In this document: piece by piece, positions 3,555 through 62,008 of the stretch
Layout: each line of letters begins with the position of its first letter
How positions within the stretch are numbered: the stretch's first letter is position 1
DNA from: Agrypnia vestita
Lineage: Eukaryota > Arthropoda > Insecta > Trichoptera > Phryganeidae
NCBI GenBank assembly: GCA_016648135.1
Contig: JADDOH010008103.1
Location: forward strand, 1 to 64,000
Direction of reading: 5' to 3'
Length of the DNA: 64,000 nucleotides
Notes under the pieces: generated by a model
Databases searched by the model: none
Told to the model about the DNA's origin: nothing
The model's input: the letters and a program-made list of their open reading frames with translations, nothing else
Position numbers and translations under genes: made by a program

Positions 3555-4245
3555 TTCTTCTTCTTCTTTTGGTGTCATGTCAGGTCCCCCCAACGTTGAC
3601 TATCACCCGAGAGAAAGCGTCCCTGTCCTGGGCAGCACGAAACAGCTTTCCAACACTTCTTATGCCCGTCCAGTCGCGTACATTGCGGAGCCAGGAAATT
3701 TGTCTCCTTCCAACACCTCTACGACCCTCTATCTTGCCCGTAAGAATCAGGTGAAGCAATTCATATTTTTCTCTTCTGAGCACATGACCCAAATACGATA
3801 CCTTTCGGATTTTGATATTTGTCAGCAACTCTCTATTCACTCTAGCTCTTTGAAGAACTCTTGTGTTGCTGATCATATCCGTCCAGGGTATCCGGAGCAT
3901 TCTCCGATGTATCCACATTTCGAACGCCTCCAGCCGGTTCATGCTACTCACTTTGAGGGTCCACGATTCCACTCCGTACAGTAGGACTGACTATATATAA
4001 CATTTGTCCAGTCGCTGTCGAAGTTTCAGGTTAAGATTGTCATCGCAGAATATCTGTCTCATTTTGTTAAAAGCAGCTCGCGATGCTTCAATTCTGCATT
4101 TGACTTCGGTTTCTGGGTCGAGGTCTTCCGCTAGGATACTTCCAAGGTATTTAAACTTTGTCACTCTCTCTATACCAGCCCCATTCAATGTGAGGCGTGC
4201 TCCCGTGTGATCTTGCCTACTAAATGTCGGTGCATGCACGGATTA
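3555..4245 (-). pseudogene. LINE-B non-LTR retrotransposon, 3' fragment nested in Tigger
   Basis: Two minus-strand frames cover it. The first, 3991-4239, has LTLNGAGIERVTKFKYLGSI and EASRAAFNKMRQIF. The second, 3580-3972, has ESWTLKVSSMNRLEAFEMW, HRRMLRIPWTDM, VSYLGHVLRREKYELL and GRRQISWLRNVRDWTG. A frameshift at 3972-3991 separates them. The element ends in (GAA)n at 3555-3567. It is the same family as 2555-3045 and 15340-15668, truncated at its 5' end and without the catalytic RT core. Confidence 0.88.
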
Positions 4246-4559
4246 AACTACCCACAAGTTATTTGATTGTCGTTGACAATCCGGATAGTCACAAATCCGT
4301 ATAACTCAGGTTCGGATAATAGAGTGTCTACTGCCACTTATAATATCTATTGACGGTTAACTTAACTAATATGTAAAATGACACAATGCCAAACGTTGAT
4401 CTGAGAGATTTTTTCAAACTATCTATGGATCTGTCTCCTATAAGCGGCACTGGGTCCGAGGAGGATATAACATTTAAATAACAAATATACATTCAAATCG
4501 TAAATGTTATAAATGATAAATTGGCATATATTACGTTAAACATTTTAATTAACATAAAT

Positions 4560-4790
4560 GATTCATATCAAAGGTGTAGGATAATCCTGCTTCGGAAAAC
4601 TCGCCATATGGAACAGATCAATGTCCAAAGTCCAATTGTTCGGCTTAGAGGTAGCTCTTCCAACAGGCATAACCATCGGCAGGTTGGTCCTGTATATTTC
4701 ATTTTGAAACAATCTATGTTGATGCTGTCTTAGATAATTATCAGGAACATACAAACCAAGGAGGCACCCGAGATATATAAACACCCGGTG
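4560..4790 (-). pseudogene. Jockey-like LINE reverse transcriptase, C-terminal remnant
   Basis: The minus-strand frame has GLYVPDNYLRQHQHRLF, IYRTNLPMVMPVGRATSKPN and DIDLFHM. This is the same C-terminal block as the remnant at 983-1249. Both belong to one Jockey-like family. The RT palm is missing and the copy is short. Confidence 0.82.
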
Positions 4791-4969
4791 AATATAAATA
4801 GGGATGACGGTCTTAAATTAAAAACGTCGTGGTGTGCAGAATCAATTGAAACGACGACTCTGCACATATGGTTATCTGAACACTGACACAACGCAACAAA
4901 AACTCTTGAAAACATCTGTCTCCAACACGGTATCATCACACAATATATTAACAGATTCACACCCTTCTT

Positions 4970-5060
4970 TCGACACGGTATTGCAAGCCAGTACTTAAAT
5001 TAAATGAAAACTAGGACACTTTGATTTGGATACGGTATTGCAAGCCAATATTTAACCTTA
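4970..5060 (+). repeat. Short direct repeat
   Basis: ACGGTATTGCAAGCCA occurs twice, about 55 bases apart (near 4976 and 5031), each followed by a similar TAYTTAA stretch. It may be a local duplication or the edge of an unrecognised element. Confidence 0.5.
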
Positions 5061-5224
5061 ACAACAACACGCATTAATAATTAAACATTACAATGAGCAG
5101 TTTGTAAAATTATCAAAGCTACAGAACTAATGTACTTGTAGCAGAAGAACTGGGTGGTATAGCCGCATGCAGAGTACTTAGAGTATCGTAGACTCTAAAG
5201 AATAAAAAAAAAATACTCCTCACA

Positions 5225-5305
5225 TCAGTCCCGATGATGAAAAGTCGGCCAGAGAGATCAGATATACACGGCAGAATATCCCAGAAAACTACACATAGTA
5301 GATAA
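5225..5305 (+). repeat. Penelope-like end fragment (GGCCAGAGAG type)
   Basis: Contains GTCGGCCAGAGAG, then ATACACGGCAGAATATCC and CAGAAAACTAC. The same string occurs in the nested copies at 50820-51005 and 56275-56530 and as a scrap at 18305. Here the preceding CCGATGATGAAAAGTCGG is a shortened form of the hammerhead-like region of those copies. Confidence 0.55.
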
Positions 5306-6100
5306 TGTCCAGAATCTCATAATTTAATCATTTGCGAGCTTCTCTTTTTACATTCCAACCTATTGTTACATTTCGATTCGGCAAAATTTGGTTTTAAACA
5401 CATCGATTTCTGAGACCGCTATAGTGTTTTGTCTATTTAATTTATATTATTTGTTGTATAAATGAAGATGGAAAAGAAAGTAAAAAAATATTTACATACA
5501 AAAAAGAATATGCGATGAAAATAAAGCCGTTGAAAAAAATGTTTAAAATAATGCTAACCTACAAAAAATGGAAGATTCGTATTTTGTTCATTTAAGACAT
5601 TCAATTGTTTGTACATGCATTTCGGTGGTGCTGTATATTCGTATGCAAATCTTACATCGTGGTGACATTGCACATGAATTGCGTATAAGGATCGATTATC
5701 ATATCCTTTCAATTCTGAAAAACTACGTACGTATTTTTATATTGTTTAAATGCTTAAAGACAAGGAAGTCTTTCATCGATACGAAGGCCACTCCAACAAA
5801 GAAATTCTCACTTATAACTTAAGATGTTTAAAAATAATAACAATTTTTAATTTTTAATCACCTTACAGAAACAAATCATTCTTTTGATATGAAAAATGTT
5901 AAAAACGATTTCAATCAAATAACAAAGAATTACATTTAGATAATCGGAAATTTTAGAAATTAGAAAAAGCAAATTAAATATTATAAACCAACAAATCCTT
6001 TTGCTAATTAATACATTTAAAATTTGTTTTCATGTTGGTTATTAAACTTCAATTTATTTTATTTTGTTTTTACTAATTTCTTTATTCAAATTTCAATTTT
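5306..6100. other. AT-rich sequence, nothing recognised
   Basis: An 84-codon open frame at 5568-5822 (plus) is not similar to anything recognised and has no supporting context. The rest is low-complexity AT DNA. Confidence 0.5.
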
Positions 6101-6104
6101 CAGT

Positions 6105-6180
6105 ATACGTTGTATCCTGATGAAGAAATCATTGCATCCAAAACGTGTTGTTTAATCAATAGATAGTAGTTTTATACAAA
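6105..6180 (+). repeat. Penelope-like end, degenerate
   Basis: TATCCTGATGAAGAAATC, AAAACGTGTTG, a run like TCAATAGATAGTAGTTTTAT and ACAAAGT follow in the same order as at 27706-27800. The GAAAC of the hammerhead core is changed, so ribozyme folding is unlikely here. Confidence 0.5.
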
Positions 6181-6194
6181 GTATTTTCTAATTA

Positions 6195-6330
6195 CGATAA
6201 ATTATAGAGGCCTCACAGAGATGAAACTGTGAATGTGAGAATCATGTGTGTAGTCTTTATACGATGGCCCAGGGCTTGCAACCTGTATGAGCTGGCTTAA
6301 ACGACCACTCTACATAATGAAACGTTCACC
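6195..6330 (+). repeat. LTIR element, subtype b, one arm
   Basis: The arm reads CCTCACAGAGATGAAACTGT, then ACGATGGCCCAGGGCTT, AACCTGTATGAGCTGGCTTAA and CACCAATTTCATC. The same order occurs at 10530-10640 and, inverted, at 10840-10930 and 52440-52620. The opposite arm is replaced by the 39-bp tandem array that follows. Confidence 0.6.
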
Positions 6331-6360
6331 AATTTCATCTTTAGAACATTCATACAATGT

Positions 6361-6620
6361 CAAATTTATCTTAATTAATTTTCCAGTATCTGGTCATCCA
6401 GTAACTGAAGTTCTATAATTTATCTTAATTCATTTTCCAGTAACTGAAGTTCTATAATTTATCTTAATTCATTTTCCAGTAACTGAAGTTCTATAATTTA
6501 TCTTAATTAATTGTCCAGTAACTGGAGTTCTACAGTTTATCTTAATTAATTTACCAGTCAATGGTCATCCAGTAACTGAAGTTCTATAATTAATCTTAAT
6601 TACTTTTTCAGTAACAGGTC
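6361..6620 (+). repeat. 39-bp minisatellite
   Basis: The unit, roughly CCAGTAACTGAAGTTCTATA plus ATTTATCTTAATTAATTTT, repeats with an exact 39-base period: the AGTA start is seen at 6400, 6439, 6478, 6517 and 6556. The first and last units carry the same extra TGGTCATCC insertion. The unit is like the terminal part of LTIR subtype b (CTATAATTTATC, TTAATTAATT, CCAGTA), so the array probably arose from the end of the neighbouring LTIR arm. Confidence 0.85.
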
Positions 6621-6710
6621 TTGTCGAATCTTCCACGGATATCCTCTATTTCTAGAGCTATTCACTCATACCCCTTGACCAAACTACCTTATTACCTTTA
6701 ATCCTTCTAT

Positions 6711-6850
6711 TCAAGAACACTTTCCTATTGTGAAGTTGCAATTTTTTCTTAGAAAGTGATCCGTGGTTCAAATCCCGGTAGCAGCCAAATATTTTTTCGT
6801 GGATTTGATTTTTTTGTATCTTTCTAATTGATTAAACCTTAAACCTTAAT
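6711..6850 (+). mobile_element. TFB retroposon, single-arm form
   Basis: It begins TCAAGAACACTTTCC and TGTGAAGTTGCAA, as the full TFB copies at 37871 and 46852 do. It then passes straight to one tRNA-like arm with GTGGTTCAAATCCCGGTAGC (B-box-like) and ends in the family terminus TTTCTAATTGATTAA. It lacks the inverted left arm and spacer. It could be a progenitor-like monomer or an internal deletion. Confidence 0.6.
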
Positions 6851-8600
6851 CCTGTTCTGTAGGCTTCATCAGTAATATTTTTTTTCTCTTATCATAAATG
6901 GATTTACCACATATGCATATCCGAGTGACCTTTCTTAATATTTATCTTACAATTACGATGTTTCATCTCAAATAAAACATATTTCACGACATAAGATGCG
7001 ATGCCGTCATCGGTGTAGGATTAAGTTTAATAAAAAATATAAGTTAATAAAAAAATGTACGCTCGTAGATGAAGGAAATTTTTCTTTACACATAAAATGC
7101 ATGAGTATGCATTGAGCCGTTGCCATGCAAATATTGCAAATGCTATTTTTTTTATCAGTGTTTCAATTCTTCGCATTATGCGCGACCCTGAGATAAAAAT
7201 ATTTGCTTGCATGAGTAGGGTGGTTGAAAATAATATGAGCAGTGTAATTGTATACCATACAAACATATCAGAAAAAACCGCCTATAATTAGGTACATAAA
7301 AAAATTATAATGTTTATGAAATATTTACCTTGGTTTATTAAAAAAAACAATAAAAAAAAATATTTTCGCATTCAAAATTTCTCGACGTCGTATTACACGA
7401 CTCATTCTTTTTCGTTTTACATTTAGTTTATTTCAAATCTTACTATCGTATATTTTAAGCTTGTAATGTTATATAGACTATTGTTTTGTTTTTCACTTTG
7501 CACGAAGCGATAACCCCGCATTTTTGTGTTTGATGTTGCAACGGGATACGGATAGACATATATGTATGAGATGGTGGGCGACCATTGCGTGTTGCGCGCT
7601 GATTGCGTTTCTTATTCTAGCTTTCTAAAATCGTAATTCCAGCTTCATCCCAGCAAGTTACGGACGTTACGTTAAAGTCAAACAATAAACTGATAACCAA
7701 CTCAGACTCATGTAGCAATCAAACATTAATGCGTTTTTTTGGATTTTGTGGAATTCGTACCTACCCATATTTTGGAGTCCTTTTTGTACATACAATAAAT
7801 TTGAAAAAATGTTCTTTTAAATAAAAATCTACGTGATAATTTAGATGGATGGAGGAATTAAAACATAATCTATGTTATTATAGTTTTATTATATTTTACT
7901 ACTCGTGCAATATGAATGGAGCCGTTACTCCTAAACATAGAAAGTCCTGAATGAGGGTGGCTTGGAAATGTCTTGCGAATGCCAGAGAAAGACTTCCACC
8001 TTATATCTTCGTGGCAACTCGAGAAGAAAAGCCGTCTATGGGTCGATGGGACAAACAATTAAAATGATTATATTGAGGCAAAATACAGGAAAACCTGTAA
8101 GCGCCTTGTCCAAAATTTAACCCCCGACTCTTAGAATAATAGTATATTATAATAATAGTACAGTAAAATAATAAGGGGATGAAGTAAATAATGATATTGT
8201 ATATTTACTTTAAAAAAAAAACACTTTACTATTATCTTAATTAAGGAAAATTACAGAAAAACTATAGAAAATTGGGCGTAAATTTTAATAAAGGCGGGTT
8301 CGTATAATCATATTAAAATCTCGGTATTATGAACGCAGTGATTATATTTTTTATGTATGTATGTGCTTTACTATATTACAGAGGCGCAAGGCGTTCGGGC
8401 TTGCGGTAGGTCCACGCCGGGTGAGTGACCCCTGGGAAAGATAGGGGCGCTAAATATTGGTTCAAGAACCAAAAGAATTTATCGAGAATTATCATTTTAT
8501 CGGATCGGAATTCCGATAATGTACCGATGGACCAATGAGATTGGTAGACATGAGGTGAGACCTTTATCCAGCAGTAGATAGAAAACTGAATGATAGAAAT
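6851..8600. other. No recognised gene
   Basis: AT-rich to moderately mixed. Open frames at 7027-7266 (minus), 7097-7291 (plus), 7870-8058 (minus) and 8376-8627 (minus) give unrecognised translations. A less AT-rich patch at 8380-8460 contains AGGCGCAAGGCGTTCGGGC but shows no motif that can be named. Confidence 0.5.
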
Positions 8601-9205: not shown

Positions 9206-9543
9206 TCTATACTAATATTTAAAGAGGTAAAGTTTGTAAGTTTATAAGTTTGGAAGTAGGAGGTAAACTCCAAAACTACTCATCCGATTTCAAAACTTCT
9301 TTCACCAATATAAAAATGGACTACAAGGTGGACATAGATTGTATATTATCCCATTAAAATAAAATGACTTTTCGCGGTGACCCATTTTACAACTAAAGTC
9401 GACGAAAAAAATGGTCGAGCGATGCGTTTTTTACAAACGCTGCCTTAATGGTAAGACATATTTAAATAGGTTAGTACACAAATTAATAAAATATAACTAT
9501 TGGTACTAAAAATCTAGCGTGAAAAACCGCGCGGGTAAGTTAG
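9206..9543 (+). mobile_element. Non-autonomous Helitron-like element
   Basis: The 5' end is TCTATACTAATATTTAAAG after a flanking A. The 3' end has the palindrome CCGCGCGG at the expected distance from TTAG (decayed CTAG) and a flanking T. This is the layout of lepidopteran short Helitrons: TC start, 3' hairpin, CTRR end, insertion between A and T. An internal stretch with CATCCGATTTCAAAA and ACAACTAAAGTCGACGAAAA matches the reverse complement of 53373-53762. No Rep/helicase is encoded. Confidence 0.8.
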
Positions 9544-15339: not shown

Positions 15340-15668
15340 TCCATTGACGTATATTGAAGTTTCCTGCGTGGATAGAGTGAGAATGATGAAAGACCGAGAA
15401 GTGCTGCGAACTATCAAGATAAGAAAGCTGGAGTATCTCAGACGTATTAAGAGAGGATTAAAATATAGTCTAAACCAACTAACTCAGCATCCAGGGGAAA
15501 ATAAGTGGTAAAAGAAGCGTAGGAAGGCGTCGCATCCTATGGCTGCGTACCTTGGGGGACTGGTATAAGTGTAACTTGACTGAGTTGTTTCGTGCGTATA
15601 AAAGTCGTAATCACCAGAATGATCGCCGACCTCCGATAGGAGATGGCATCATAAGAAGAAGAAATTGT
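15340..15668 (+). pseudogene. LINE-B 3' fragment
   Basis: The frame 15326-15511 includes REVLRTIKIRKLEYL. After a frameshift the next part matches SVGRRRI.WLRTLGDW. The 3' end has CGTAATCACCAGAATGATCG, CCGATAGGAGATGGC and a short AAGAAGAAGAAA tail. The 3' end is nearly the same as at 63163-63325. It is truncated and inactive. Confidence 0.8.
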
Positions 15669-15827
15669 CAATTTCAGTTTGCTACGCAATTACAAAAAGA
15701 CAACCGAATGTCAATCTTGGCACCTTGAATCAATATACAATGCAATTGAAACTGTCCAACAAAATAAAATTCATTTGGTTTTCCTCAAGTTAGTTTTAGA
15801 AGAAATAAATCAATATATCAATATATA

Positions 15828-16174
15828 TGCACAACCAGCCACAACCACCCACCGGTGGTTATGGTGGTGGATAGCCATTGGTGTCACATCAAAAATATGC
15901 GAGTTTGGTGGGGGTGGCTGTGCGTGGGTGGGAGTGGGTGACGAAAATGTGCTTTCTAGTACATTGTTTTTTTTATGGGAAGGCCGCAATTGCTTCAGAT
16001 TGTTTCAAAATAGGCGCGCCAACTGTGTCGGTGAGTCTAGAAGGTTCCTGTTTTTTCGAAAAATTTCTTGAAAGTTCTGGAAGGAGAATGTTCTGGAAGG
16101 TTCACGAAAGTTCTATGACGATCCAAACAGTGTACTAAAAATCTACGTGTGTGAAGCCGCGCGGGCGCAGCTAG
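15828..16174 (+). mobile_element. Helitron-like element with heat-shock-element array, copy 1
   Basis: The 3' end is GAAGCCGCGCGGGCGCAGCT then AG and a flanking T, giving the palindrome CCGCGCGG (16157-16164) and CTAG (16171-16174). The body matches the other two copies: ACCACCCACCGGTGG, GACGAAAATGTGCTTTCTAG, GCTTCAGATTGTTTCAAAAT and ACGATCCAAACAGTGTAC. The 5' boundary is uncertain. The open frame 15878-16138 is a shadow of the repeat. The array is listed separately. Confidence 0.78.
16065..16113 (+). promoter_or_regulatory. Heat-shock-element array in Helitron copy 1
   Basis: Two perfect runs of alternating pentamers. 16065-16082 is TTCnnGAAnnTTCnnGAA. 16086-16113 holds six units, GAAnnTTCnnGAAnnTTC extended by nnGAAnnTTC. 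This is the binding site of the HSF trimer, where three perfect units are normally enough. Binding is inference; the pattern is seen directly. Confidence 0.8.
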
Positions 16175-19981: not shown

Positions 19982-20405
19982 CTAGCTGTGCCCGCGCGGC
20001 TTCGCACGCTTAGATTTTTAGTACACTGTTTGGATCGTCATAGAACTTTCGCAAACCTTCTAGAACATTCTCCTTCCAGAACTTTCAAGAAATTTATTGA
20101 ATGTACAGGAACCTTCTAGACACCGACACATTCCGCCACTCGATCTAGAACGTTATAGAACTTCCAGAACTTTCTAGAGCAGGTTTTTTCGGAATCTTCT
20201 AGACTAACCAACACAGTCGGTGCGCCTATTTTGAAACAATCTGAAGCATTTGTGGCCTTCCCATAACAAAACAATGTGCTAGAAAGCACATTTTCGTCAC
20301 CCACTCCCACCCACACAGAGCCACCCCCACCAAACTCGCAAATTTTCGATGTGACACCAAGGGCTATCCACCATCATAACCACCGGTGGGTGTATATATT
20401 GTATT
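19982..20405 (-). mobile_element. Helitron-like element with heat-shock-element array, copy 2
   Basis: The 3' end on the plus strand is a flanking A, then CTAGCTGTGCCCGCGCGGCT, the mirror of copy 1. The body contains the same AAGCACATTTTCGTCACCCA and ACACAGTCGGTGCGCC strings. The distal end is near 20405, after CCACCGGTGGGTG. The open frame 20116-20316 is a repeat shadow shared with the other copies. Confidence 0.78.
20043..20091 (-). promoter_or_regulatory. Heat-shock-element array in Helitron copy 2
   Basis: 20043-20070 is a six-unit run with one decayed unit (GAAnnTTCnnAAAnnTTC, then nnGAAnnTTC). 20074-20091 is a perfect TTCnnGAAnnTTCnnGAA. A further three-unit site, TTCnnGAAnnTTC, lies at 20162-20174. 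Confidence 0.78.
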
Positions 20406-21155: not shown

Positions 21156-21688
21156 CTAGCTGTGCCTGCGCGGCTTCGCACGCGTAGATTTTTAGTACAC
21201 TGTTTGGATCGTCATAGAACTTTCGCGAACCTTCTAGATCATTTTCCTTCCAGAACTTTCAAGAAATTTATCGAATATACAGGAACCTTCTAAACACACC
21301 GACATATTCCGCCACTCAGTTTAGAACCTTATAGAACTTTCGGGAATTTTCTAGAACCTTCTCCTTCCAGAACTTTCTAGAGCAGGTTTTTCCGGAACCT
21401 TCTAGATTCACCGACACAGTCGGCGCGCCTATTTTGAAACAATCTGAAGCATTTGCGGCCTTCCCATAACAAAACAATGTGCTAGAAAGCACATTTTCGT
21501 CACTCACTCTCACCCACGCACAGCCAGCTCCACCAAACTCGCATACTTTCAGTGTGACACCAAGGGCTATCCACCACCATAACCACCGTAGGGTGGTTGT
21601 GGCTGGTTGTGGAGGAAACTTGGCGGATAGGGAAACACGGGTTTCTTTTTATATATGTATATTGATTATATTTTGATTTTTTTATAGA
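21156..21688 (-). mobile_element. Full-length Helitron-like element with heat-shock-element array, copy 3
   Basis: On the minus strand it starts TCTATAAAAAAATC after a flanking A (21688 downward). It ends GAAGCCGCGCAGGCACAGCT then AG, with CTAG at 21156-21159 followed by T. It is therefore a complete 533-bp unit inserted between A and T. The body has AACCACCCTACGGTGG, GACGAAAATGTGCTTTCTAG, GCTTCAGATTGTTTCAAAAT and a long heat-shock-element array. No Rep/helicase is present, so it depends on another element. The open frame 21316-21513 is shared with copies 1 and 2. Confidence 0.82.
21217..21377 (-). promoter_or_regulatory. Heat-shock-element arrays in Helitron copy 3
   Basis: Four perfect runs: 21217-21234 (four units, GAAnnTTCnnGAAnnTTC), 21248-21265 (four units), 21334-21361 (six units) and 21365-21377 (three units, TTCnnGAAnnTTC). 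This is the densest set in the window. Strength of HSF binding is inference. Confidence 0.82.
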
Positions 21689-24602: not shown

Positions 24603-24999
24603 ACGCTGGACCGTCGCATGAACCCAAATTATTTTTGCAACAAAGTCCCATAATTTTTTCATTTGTAGATATATTTTAGTGATTCTTTCACATTTTTGCT
24701 TTATTTTACTAGTTTTTTTTTTATATATAAACTTCTTCATTCTGCGTAGCCTGACAAACAGAGAGGCCAGTACAAGAAAACAAAAAACTAGCTTAATGCC
24801 AACATAAGAAACACTTGTTTAACATTGCTTTATTTTAACAAAACTATCTATCGAAAAAATATTTTGTTACTTTCTCTTGTCGGGAGAATGCGTTACGATT
24901 CAGGCATCTAAACAATTTAAGATAACGATTAATGTAAGATTTATTAATGTAAGATTTTATAATGAAAAAAAAATGTATATAAAAACAATTATGCATATT

Positions 25000-25596
25000 G
25001 TTTCTGCGGGAAACAAAGTTAATGGTGCACTAAATGCAATTATGGCCAATAAGAATCTGTCAAAAGAAGCAAGACTAGCGGTACATAATGGCGTTCTAGT
25101 GCCAACCCTTATGTATGGAAGTGAAGCCTGGAATTGGCAAAAGAGGAATGAAAGTAGACTGAATGCGGTTGAAATGCGGTCACTAAGACGCTTGTGTGGA
25201 AAATCTTTGGTCGATAGAGTGAGGAATGAACAAATTAGAAGTGAATGCAATGCTGGCTGTAGTGTGGTAGATAGAATAAAGAAAGGAGTGCTGAGATGGT
25301 TTGGTCATGTGGAACGTATGAACGAGGAAAGGATGGTTAAGAAAATATATGAGGCGAATGTTGAAGGCAACAGGAATAGAGGGCGTCCGTGAAAGACCTG
25401 GCACGATCAGGTACTACAAGTATTTGAGGATGGCCCTGTTAAAAGCTGCAACAATCGTAGAACGTGTATGAGAAGATGTATGAATGTGGCCGAAGCAAAA
25501 GTGGTGTGCCAGGATAGAAGAGTGTGGCGTTCAATCCTCTCTGCCTACCCCTGCGGGGAAACGGCGTGATGGTTAGTTAGTTAGTTAGTTAGTTCT
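25000..25596 (+). pseudogene. LINE-A non-LTR retrotransposon, C-terminal fragment
   Basis: The frame has AGNKVNGALNAIMANKNL, PTLMYGSEAWNWQKRNESRL, EMRSLRRLCGKSLVDRVR, VLRWFGHVERMNEERM and GNRNRGRP. An in-frame TGA replaces an Arg codon at 25390. Translation then resumes with KTWHDQV, NRRTCMRRCMNVAEAKVV and QDRRVWRSILSAYP to the natural stop. A (GTTA)n tail follows at 25572-25594. Short tandem tails are typical of RTE-like LINEs. The RT palm is lost by 5' truncation. Confidence 0.88.
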
Positions 25597-46851: not shown

Positions 46852-47265
46852 ATATCCAAGAACACATTCTTATTTGTGAAGTTGTAATTTTTCAGAACAA
46901 AGTTCTGTGAAATTTTTTAAAACCAAATTAATTAATCAATTAGAAAGACATGCAGAATAATCTAATTCACGAAAAAATATTTGGCTACTATCGGGATTCG
47001 AACCCGGGCTACCTACTTTCCGGGGCCGGTGCTCTAACCAATGGACAAAAATAAGAAAATTAATCAATTAATAAAGTGAGAATTACATATATTCGGTCGA
47101 TATATTCACGGAAATATACAAGGCTCTTATAGCTTAGTGGTTAGAGCACCGGCCCCGGAAAGGAGGTGGCCCGGGTTCGAATCCTGGTAGTAGTTAAATG
47201 TTTTTTCATGAATTAGATTATTCTGTATGTCTTTCTAGTTGATTAATTAATTTTGTTTTAAAAAT
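46852..47265. mobile_element. TFB foldback retroposon with tRNA-like arms, best copy
   Basis: An exact 10-base duplication, TATACAAATT, flanks it (46842-46851 and 47266-47275). After a 65-base leader (CAAGAACACATTC, TGTGAAGTTGTAATTTTTCA) comes an inverted pair of arms, about 46917-47040 and 47126-47262. Each arm holds a tRNA-like module. The right one has A-box-like TAGCTTAGTGGTTAGAGC, then CCGGCCCCGGAAAGGAGG and B box GGTTCGAATCC, with a foldable T arm CCGGGTTCGAATCCTGG. The left one is its mirror (GGATTCGAACCCGGGC). No acceptor stem closes, so neither is a functional tRNA gene. Confidence 0.78.
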
Positions 47266-53372: not shown

Positions 53373-53762
53373 CCAGCTTACCCGGGCGGCTTCGCACGCG
53401 TAGTATTTTGTTAACTTTTAGTCATATTTTATCAATTTGTGAATTAACCTTAATAAATAGAAAGATATATGTTATCGTGGACTACAGGTCTACAACTACT
53501 CTATATAAAGTATTTAAATATCTTTTACTGTTAAGGCAGCGTTCGTAAAAAAAGCTTTGCTCGAAAATTTTTCGTCGACTTTAGTTGTAAAATAGGTTAC
53601 CACAAAAATTTCCTTTATTTTGACGAGATAATATATAATCTGTGTCGACCCTGAAAATCAATTCTAAATATTGGTGAAAAAATTTTTGAAATCGGATGAG
53701 TAGTTTTGGAGATTAGCTACATCCAAACTTACAAACTTAACCTCTTTATATGCTCGTATAGA
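53373..53762 (-). mobile_element. Non-autonomous Helitron-like element
   Basis: On the minus strand it starts TCTATACGAGCATATAAAGA (from 53762) and ends GCGAAGCCGCCCGGGTAAGC then TGG, so the terminus is CTGG, a valid CTRR. It matches 9206-9543 in reverse (CATCCGATTTCAAAAA, AACTAAAGTCGACGAAAAAT, CGAACGCTGCCTTAA). It lacks the heat-shock-element arrays of the other three elements. Confidence 0.78.
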
Positions 53763-61349: not shown

Positions 61350-62008
61350 CAGTTTTATCATGTTCGATAGAAGAGGGAATGTTGAGAAAGATATAGAGAG
61401 GAGAGTGACTGCCGGGAATAGAGTGAACGGTGCTTTGAATGCAATAATTTCTAATAGAAATATGTTTACCGAGGCAAAACTGGCGGTACATAATGTAGTT
61501 CTGGTACCGACACTAATGTATGGAAGTGAAGCCTGGAGCTGGCAGAAGAGGAACGAAAGTAGATTGAATGTAGTGGAGATGAGGTCCCTTAGACGTATGT
61601 CCCTTAGAGTGGTAAATCCATGTATGATAGAGTAAAGAATGAAGATATTAGGAATGAATGTAAAGCTGATCGTAGCGTAATACAGAGAATAAAAATAGGG
61701 TCACTCAGGTGGTTTGGGCACGTTGAGCGAATGAATGGGGAAAGAATGGTAAGAAAGATATATGATGCAAGTGTTGACGGCGCCAGAAAGAGAGGGCGAC
61801 CACGGAAGACGTGGCATGACCAGATTAACCAGATACTGGAAGATGGTCCTGTTAGAAGCCTGAACAACCGTCGAGCTTGCATGCGAAGATGTATGAATGT
61901 AGACGAAGCGAAAGTTGTATGTCAGGACAGAAGAGTATGGCGCTCTATCCTCTCTGCCTACCCCCACGGAGAAACGGCGTGATGGTAAGTAAGTAAGTAA
62001 GTAAGTTA
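61350..62008 (+). pseudogene. LINE-A, longest copy in the window
   Basis: Frame one (to 61635) has MFDRRGNVEKDIERRVTAGN, RVNGALNAIISNRNMF, PTLMYGSEAWSWQKRNESRL and EMRSLRRM. A direct duplication of TCCCTTAG near 61585-61610 shifts the frame. Frame two (61620-61982) continues YDRVKNEDIRNECKADRSVI, LRWFGHVERMNGERMV, KRGRPRKTWHDQINQILEDG, RRACMRRCMNVDEAKVVCQD and RSILSAYPHGETA to the natural stop. The tail is (GTAA)n at 61985-62007. The RT palm is absent. Confidence 0.9.

What the first reader, a model, noticed from the sequence alone, without database searches (positions are those of the whole stretch)
21156..21688. Helitron-like elements that carry long perfect heat-shock-element arrays
Three related short Helitrons (15828-16174, 19982-20405, 21156-21688) each hold multi-unit HSEs. 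The best runs are six perfect alternating GAA/TTC pentamers at 16086-16113 and 21334-21361, plus four-unit runs at 16065-16082, 20074-20091, 21217-21234 and 21248-21265. A given four-unit run fixes 12 bases, about 1 in 16.8 million by chance, so many in one family mean it was built into the element. Helitrons that spread HSF sites and rewire heat-shock response are described in nematodes; I do not know of this in insects. Each copy could make nearby genes heat-inducible.
Basis: partly seen in the sequence, partly recalled or inferred. Interest (0 to 1): 0.88.

Follow-up and report, generated by a model that had tools for sequence, protein, structure and literature searches.

The report
Moth-type Helitrons packed with heat-shock sites
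A jumping-DNA family in what appears to be a butterfly or moth genome carries long, precisely spaced binding sites for the heat-shock switch protein and seems to have scattered thousands of them, which could tie genes to the heat response, although binding itself has not yet been tested.

Summary
All six HSE runs stated are present, plus four runs of three units. They lie in one family of short non-autonomous Helitrons, A|TCAATATA...CAGCTAG|T, about 510 bp. By one LINE remnant the genome is lepidopteran. In the 1.32-Gb genome the pattern of six perfect alternating units has 8508 matches; the reversed control has 0 and about 0.09 are expected. Of 50 such runs in the first contigs, 47 lie within 700 bp of the Helitron's HSE-free body and 3 in two long relatives. 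The 2-nt spacing is specific and linkers are near random, unlike a plain minisatellite. The array is a unit of about 112-117 bp, present once, twice or more often per element. Against: HSE bases are not clearly better conserved between copies than the rest; 0 of 8 stretches upstream of transposase domains carry an array; binding, heat induction and distance to genes are untested. The known parallel is Caenorhabditis, where authors thought the link might be genus-restricted (PMC6927752). This would be a second case, in an insect.

The parts
21156..21665 (-). Copy C of the HSE Helitron, two tandem units (510 bp)
   Evidence: A|TCAATATA ... CAGCTAG|T termini and unrelated flanks; all 40 scored genome matches (of 4175 first-look candidates, itself included) cover 501-533 of 533 query bases or nearly so at 92-100%
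19982..20403 (-). Copy B of the HSE Helitron; its first unit has a 27-bp gap in the array
   Evidence: A|TACAATATA ... CAGCTAG|T; unit alignment
15810..16174 (+). Copy A of the HSE Helitron, single-unit form (5' end at 15810 or 15818)
   Evidence: A|TCAATATA ... CAGCTAG|T; lacks one unit of about 112 bp
21334..21361 (.). HSE array, six perfect units (copy C)
21217..21234 (.). HSE array, four perfect units (copy C)
21248..21265 (.). HSE array, four perfect units (copy C); part of a nine-unit in-phase array with two mismatching bases
21365..21377 (.). HSE, three perfect units (copy C)
21390..21402 (.). HSE, three perfect units (copy C)
20058..20070 (.). HSE, three perfect units (copy B)
20074..20091 (.). 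HSE array, four perfect units (copy B)
20162..20174 (.). HSE, three perfect units (copy B)
16065..16082 (.). HSE array, four perfect units (copy A)
16086..16113 (.). HSE array, six perfect units (copy A)
9206..9543 (+). Helitron of another family without HSE runs, similar 3' end (internal control)
   Evidence: A|TCTATAC ... GTTAG|T (last four bases TTAG, not strictly CTRR); no array
53373..53762 (-). Helitron of another family without HSE runs, similar 3' end (internal control)
   Evidence: A|TCTATACG ... CTGG|T; no array

Best explanation
A family of non-autonomous Helitrons in a probably lepidopteran genome carries, in the half next to its 3' end, one or more copies of a unit of about 112-117 bp that is itself a nearly continuous heat shock element. 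When HSF trimers form under heat or proteotoxic stress they should bind these arrays cooperatively, so that each copy acts as a stress-dependent binding platform, opens or transcribes local chromatin, and can serve as a ready-made heat-shock enhancer for a gene it lands near. SHOWN: Helitron anatomy, array structure, presence in every family copy aligned, and that the six-unit HSEs sampled lie in the family. INFERRED: HSF binding (very likely from motif quality). SPECULATIVE: heat induction of neighbours, and that stress-linked transcription or open chromatin in the germ line helped the element multiply.
For: Exact 5-bp alternation: 35 GAA/TTC pairs at spacer 2 in the three copies, at most 1 per orientation at spacers 0, 1 and 3-7, with the expected harmonic at spacer 8 (10). 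Within five arrays compared, core bases are 75-100% identical and linkers 17-39%, so this is not a recently expanded 10-mer (the arrays were chosen for their cores). 0 of 1500 Markov versions reach the observed array score in each copy. Genome: 8508 matches to the six-unit pattern, reversed control 0, 0.09 expected; 47 of 50 distinct six-unit runs lie within 700 bp of the element's HSE-free body and 3 in two long relatives. In 30 loci (28 independent sites) 132 runs of 3 or more lie in 16.3 kb of element against 4 in 88.5 kb outside. Termini: of 32 copies, 26 have a locatable 5' TCAATAT, preceded by A in 24 of the 25 where the base was shown; 28 end in the family's CTAG, all followed by T; L027 was not counted because its CTAG is not in the family's end sequence. 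In C. [quoted passage not shown] tetrameric and pentameric HSEs bind the HSF-1 domain with extra cooperativity (PMC9148306, passages).
Against: No binding or expression data. HSE cores are not clearly better conserved between copies than the rest (core 7/111, linkers 5/57, rest 71/875; core 53/1839, linkers 29/848, rest 338/10455; leaving out 5 subfamily columns after the fact, core 41/1809 against rest 310/10366, hand-computed z about 1.9). One base change that breaks an HSE unit is carried by 12 of 30 independent copies, so the element spread with it. 0 of 8 stretches (1.9-3.5 kb) upstream of Helitron transposase domains carry a run of 4 or more units. The copy count by an HSE-free probe and distances to genes could not be obtained; haplotypes kept apart in the assembly may inflate genome counts.
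Confidence: 0.72

Rival explanations
1. The array is a minisatellite-like or subterminal repeat of the Helitron (for example a transposase or replication-factor binding region) that resembles HSEs but is not used by HSF.
For: The unit of 112-117 bp is repeated in tandem in varying number and lies beside the 3' terminus; cores are not clearly better conserved than the rest between copies.
Against: Strict alternation at 2-nt spacing with nearly random linkers; a run of seven perfect units in a relative; two other Helitrons in the window with a similar 3' end lack it.
Confidence: 0.13
2. The sites bind HSF but are mainly selfish or passive: most copies sit in silent DNA and act as decoys or do nothing, with no notable effect on the host's heat response. 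(Compatible with the binding part of the best explanation.)
For: No gene was recognised near A-C, though only 10 of the 22 open frames of 110 aa or more were scanned and short exons would be missed. In C. elegans, Helitron-linked heat-response genes have lower expression and more repressive marks (PMC6927752 section 8).
Against: In C. elegans and C. briggsae a fraction of such copies is linked to heat induction (PMC6927752, section 12); with thousands of arrays some are likely to be near promoters.
Confidence: 0.45
3. The array was captured whole from an hsp promoter of the host and amplified by hitch-hiking. (Concerns origin; compatible with the best explanation.)
For: Helitrons acquire sequences (PMC3789558 and PMC6544945, passages).
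Against: Not tested: no hsp promoter of this genome was compared.
Confidence: 0.2

Closest known systems
HSE-bearing Helitrons of Caenorhabditis (HelitronY1_CE and others; Garrigues et al. 2019, PMC6927752; abstract, sections 8, 9, 12 and passages seen)
   Same: Helitrons, most of them non-autonomous, with clustered tandem HSEs that make up a large share of the genome's HSEs.
   Different: Another phylum; here a unit of about 112-117 bp of near-continuous pentamers; no array found in 8 stretches upstream of transposase domains, whereas five autonomous C. elegans Helitrons count as HSE-linked heat-response genes. That paper found enrichment only in Caenorhabditis among the UCSC genomes it scanned and suggested it may be restricted to that genus; its main text has no occurrence of 'lepidoptera', 'bombyx', 'silkworm' or 'insect' (its supplementary species list was not seen). 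Whether the two families share sequence was not tested.
Xuan-Feng Helitrons of wheat (PMC13286980, passages)
   Same: Helitrons with a predicted heat response element (nTTCnnGAAn), mobilised by heat combined with lowered DNA methylation.
   Different: Predicted elements in promoter regions of Feng members, in a plant; here long multi-unit arrays in non-autonomous elements, mobilisation untested.
Lep1 and other lepidopteran non-autonomous Helitrons (PMC4038834, PMC3789558, PMC6544945; passages only)
   Same: Short Helitrons with 5'-TC, 3'-CTRR and A/T insertion.
   Different: 'Heat shock' has 0 occurrences in the main texts of the three (search listings count 1 in PMC6544945, not seen); the Lep1 sequence was not compared here.
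Satellite-carrying Helentrons of oyster (PMC7492417, title and start of abstract in a listing)
   Same: Mobile element carrying a tandem unit.
   Different: Here the unit is built of transcription-factor-type sites.

Membership tests
Helitron (canonical, non-autonomous) | 5'-TC and 3'-CTRR termini | tested here: met
   26 of 32 copies have a locatable 5' TCAATAT; 28 of 32 end in the family's CTAG (L019 and L045 read GTAG, L034 CTAA, L027 looks truncated); A and C in the window exact, B has one extra base at the 5' end
Helitron (canonical, non-autonomous) | Insertion between A and T with no target duplication | tested here: met
   24 of 25 shown 5' neighbours are A (L033 has G); 28 of 28 3' neighbours are T. 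No empty site was examined and duplications were not tested separately
Helitron (canonical, non-autonomous) | Hairpin of 16-20 nt just inside the 3' end | tested here: inconclusive
   A stem of 7 pairs at 21166-21187 was picked up by a terminator scan, but DNA folding is no better than shuffles for 5 of 5 ends tested
Helitron (canonical, non-autonomous) | Many copies at unrelated sites | tested here: met
   30 loci at 28 independent sites; L018/L019 and L024/L025 share flanks, L035/L042 share 73 bp; window flanks score as shuffled
Helitron (canonical, non-autonomous) | RepHel transposase available in trans | tested here: inconclusive
   102 matches to PF14214 in the genome, four in open frames of 1565-1605 aa; none shown to share the HSE family's termini (8 upstream stretches)
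Heat shock element | At least three alternating nGAAn/nTTCn pentamers in 5-bp phase | tested here: met
Heat shock element | Bound by HSF and heat-inducible | not testable with these tools
   No ChIP or RNA data
HSE-spreading Helitron (Caenorhabditis type) | HSEs enriched in the Helitron compared with the rest of the genome | tested here: met
   47 of 50 six-unit runs within 700 bp of the element body, 3 in long relatives (first contigs only); 132 runs in 16.3 kb inside against 4 in 88.5 kb outside
HSE-spreading Helitron (Caenorhabditis type) | Enrichment near heat-induced genes | not testable with these tools
   No annotation or expression data for this genome
HSE-spreading Helitron (Caenorhabditis type) | HSEs at an autonomous element's transposase promoter | tested here: inconclusive
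   0 of 8 upstream stretches, chosen out of 102 domain matches, have a run of 4 or more; L092 has one 3-unit run. The stretches may not all reach the element's 5' end and the family's own autonomous partner was not identified

The most novel reading that the evidence does not exclude
A second, independently evolved HSF-site-spreading Helitron outside nematodes: in this lepidopteran lineage one Helitron family supplies essentially all long heat shock elements of the genome (thousands of copies), has built an HSE satellite unit of about 115 bp that expands to kilobase arrays inside single elements, and has rewired the heat-shock response of the species through insertion, so that recruitment of HSF is a recurrent strategy of Helitrons.
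Probability: 0.35. Interest if true: 0.9.

Novelty: new variant of a known kind. Interest (0 to 1): 0.76.

Why it matters
Helitrons loaded with HSF sites were thought possibly restricted to Caenorhabditis. The same pairing in an insect genome, where the six-unit pattern has 8508 matches, would mean that acquiring HSF sites is a repeated evolutionary route for Helitrons. It also gives a natural experiment on how mobile elements rewire stress responses: insertions with intact or decayed arrays, probably differing between individuals and species, in animals whose thermal tolerance matters.

Tried and rejected
Rejected: chance; simple 10-mer minisatellite; STAT-like spacing, since TTC-3-GAA occurs 0 times in the three elements. 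Led nowhere: DNA patterns of the element in viral contigs (no match, an array pattern: two matches, L001 and L002, judged chance by eye) and in bacterial genome contigs (15 records, all titled as bacteria, taken as chance, L003-L017 not examined); phage records (15 short weak matches); the element's open frame (110 aa; 84 aa: no homologue); Pfam on 10 of the 22 open frames of 110 aa or more (two hits below cut-off, ignored); a bacterial-type promoter and terminator scan of copy C, not informative for an animal genome except for the stem named in the membership test; the long relative L063 read in three frames for a transposase, none recognised by eye. Autonomous partner: 8 stretches chosen out of 102 transposase-domain matches carry no array. 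The HSE-free body probe, meant to give an unbiased copy count and the share of copies with intact arrays, never got an answer. Biases: the 30 loci are the best matches to copy C, so the share of copies with intact arrays is inflated; the 50 six-unit runs were found by their HSEs, so says where long HSEs lie, not how many copies keep them, and comes from contigs C1-C18 only. Literature: ten searches; no listed title or abstract start reports HSE-bearing Helitrons in insects, but searches listed only 30 of 196, 12 of 53, 12 of 109 and 12 of 148 papers, and most subscription papers are not held.

Full report
Observation. Counted as three-unit HSE windows, 20 of 23 are inside. Order-2 Markov versions of the window gave no run longer than three units in 60 simulations; Markov versions of the elements gave a run of four or more in at most 0.2% of 2000, and 0 of 1500 reach the observed best array in each copy.

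What the elements are. A (plus strand), B and C (minus strand) are one family. Read in the same direction, A starts A|TCAATATA and ends CAGCTAG|T, C the same, B starts A|TACAATATA (one extra base) and ends CAGCTAG|T; their flanks are no more alike than shuffled sequence. Two other Helitrons in the window (9206-9543, 53373-53762) have A|TCTATAC starts and a similar 3' end but no array. When the whole genome became searchable (G000, 1.32 Gb, 19,947 contigs), copy C gave 4175 first-look candidates, of which 40 were scored, all close to full length at 92-100% identity, the query itself included. In an alignment of 30 of these loci plus A and B the element is about 510 bp; 28 of 32 copies end in the family's CTAG, all 28 followed by T, and 24 of 25 shown 5' neighbours are A. 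Two pairs of loci share flanks (L018/L019, L024/L025), leaving 28 independent sites. The 3' hairpin could not be confirmed by folding.

Host. The LINE remnant at 25003-25392 finds 1087 proteins; of the 120 listed, 8 bear a species name, and all 8 belong to genera that I recall as Lepidoptera (Phthorimaea, Amyelois, Aphomia, Parnassius, Cydia three times, Eumeta) (not looked up in the taxonomy tool).

The array. The element contains a unit of about 112 bp: two tandem units in C, one in A, two in B, the first with a 27-bp gap. The second unit reads as nine in-phase alternating pentamers with two mismatching bases, a one-base phase shift, then six pentamers, perfect in the consensus. GAA/TTC pairs at spacer 2 number 35 in the three copies, against at most one per orientation at spacers 0, 1 and 3-7 (spacer 8, the harmonic, 10). 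Within five arrays compared the cores are 75-100% alike, the linkers 17-39%; the arrays were chosen for their cores, so the low linker identity is the telling part. Between the first unit of C and the corresponding unit of A, B and C, cores differ at 1, 2 and 3 of 30 positions and linkers at 6, 5 and 5 of 19 (one-sided Fisher p = 0.010, 0.069, 0.13; not independent tests). Long relatives carry more units: L063 has arrays from about 314 to 1190, and L064 has 23 runs of three or more, one of seven units, between a family-type 5' end and a family-like 3' end 3.3 kb apart; most landmark spacings in both are near 117 bp or multiples of it. L064 has a gap of 1.3 kb without HSEs, so it could hold an insert or be two nested elements.

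Genome scale. The pattern of six perfect units, which is its own reverse complement, matches 8508 places; the reversed-pattern control has 0, and composition predicts 0.09. Overlapping matches in longer runs, and haplotypes kept apart in the assembly, make the number of separate sites smaller. Around all places that one search listed (contigs C1 to C18) loci were fetched, and 50 distinct runs of six or more units were found in them: 47 lie within 700 bp of the HSE-free body, and 3 in the two long relatives, whose body lies further off. In the 30 loci, 132 runs of three or more fall in 16.3 kb of element and 4 in 88.5 kb outside.

Conservation. Between A, B and C: core 7/111, linkers 5/57, rest 71/875 differences. 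In 30 independent copies against their consensus, non-CpG: core 53/1839, linkers 29/848, rest 338/10455; five columns are split between subfamilies, one of them a core base changed in 12 of 30 copies. So there is no clear excess conservation between copies. The between-unit pattern and the near-random linkers speak for selection on the array earlier, in the lineage of source elements, but weakly.

Mechanism. HSF trimers bind alternating pentamers in this spacing (established knowledge; PMC9148306 passages, report cooperative binding of up to five domains). Binding of HSF to arrays of six or more units is therefore very likely when HSF is active; that this makes neighbours heat-inducible or helps transposition is not shown. 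A heat-inducible transposase is not supported so far: 0 of 8 stretches upstream of transposase domains (chosen by me out of 102 matches) carry a run of four or more units, but these may belong to other Helitron families.

Comparison. The same kind of thing is known in Caenorhabditis (PMC6927752; abstract and sections 8, 9 and 12), where HSF-1 binds Helitron HSEs and nearby genes respond. Those authors scanned UCSC genomes, found enrichment only in Caenorhabditis and no high-density clusters elsewhere, and suggested restriction to that genus; the main text has no mention of Lepidoptera, Bombyx or insects, and its species list was not seen. A wheat Helitron family is mobilised by heat with lowered methylation and has a predicted heat response element (PMC13286980, passages). 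Ten literature searches (four of them with capped lists) showed no report of HSE-bearing Helitrons in insects, within open-licence PMC papers only.

Verdict. Real, non-random, genome-wide and, as far as these searches can tell, unreported in insects; a new variant of a known kind. Function is inferred, not shown.

Noticed in passing
L064 (G000:C7:112500-122400), about 3800-7130 minus: A Helitron relative with 23 HSE runs of three or more units, one of seven perfect units, in repeats of about 117 bp between family-type ends 3.3 kb apart: an HSE satellite inside one mobile element (or nested elements).
   Followed up: partly
L063 (G000:C4:130000-139900), 85-1190: Another long relative with a family-type 5' end followed by about seven decayed HSE units.
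   Followed up: partly
G000 contigs C401, C6958, C19569, C6576 and others: Helitron transposase domains in long open frames (1565-1605 aa in four); at least two kinds by their upstream sequence, the C19569 and C19526 kind probably beginning A|TCTATATATTAATTACTC.
   Followed up: partly
L018 and L019; L024 and L025: Loci with 96-100% identical flanks on different contigs: probably unmerged haplotypes, so genome counts may be inflated.
   Followed up: no
window 21319-21648 (-), 20119-20373 (-), 15655-16068 (+): The body of the element has an open frame shared in part by the three copies; no homologue in the protein collection for C and A, probably chance.
   Followed up: partly
window 6397-6558: Tandem repeat of 39 bp, 4.2 copies, 94% matches.
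   Followed up: no
window 3580-3990 (-), 24823-25392 (+), 61608-61982 (+): Open frames that look by eye like LINE reverse-transcriptase tails; only the one at 25003-25392 was searched.
   Followed up: partly
window 47122-47196 (+): tRNA-Ser (GGA anticodon), the only Rfam match at gathering threshold.
   Followed up: no
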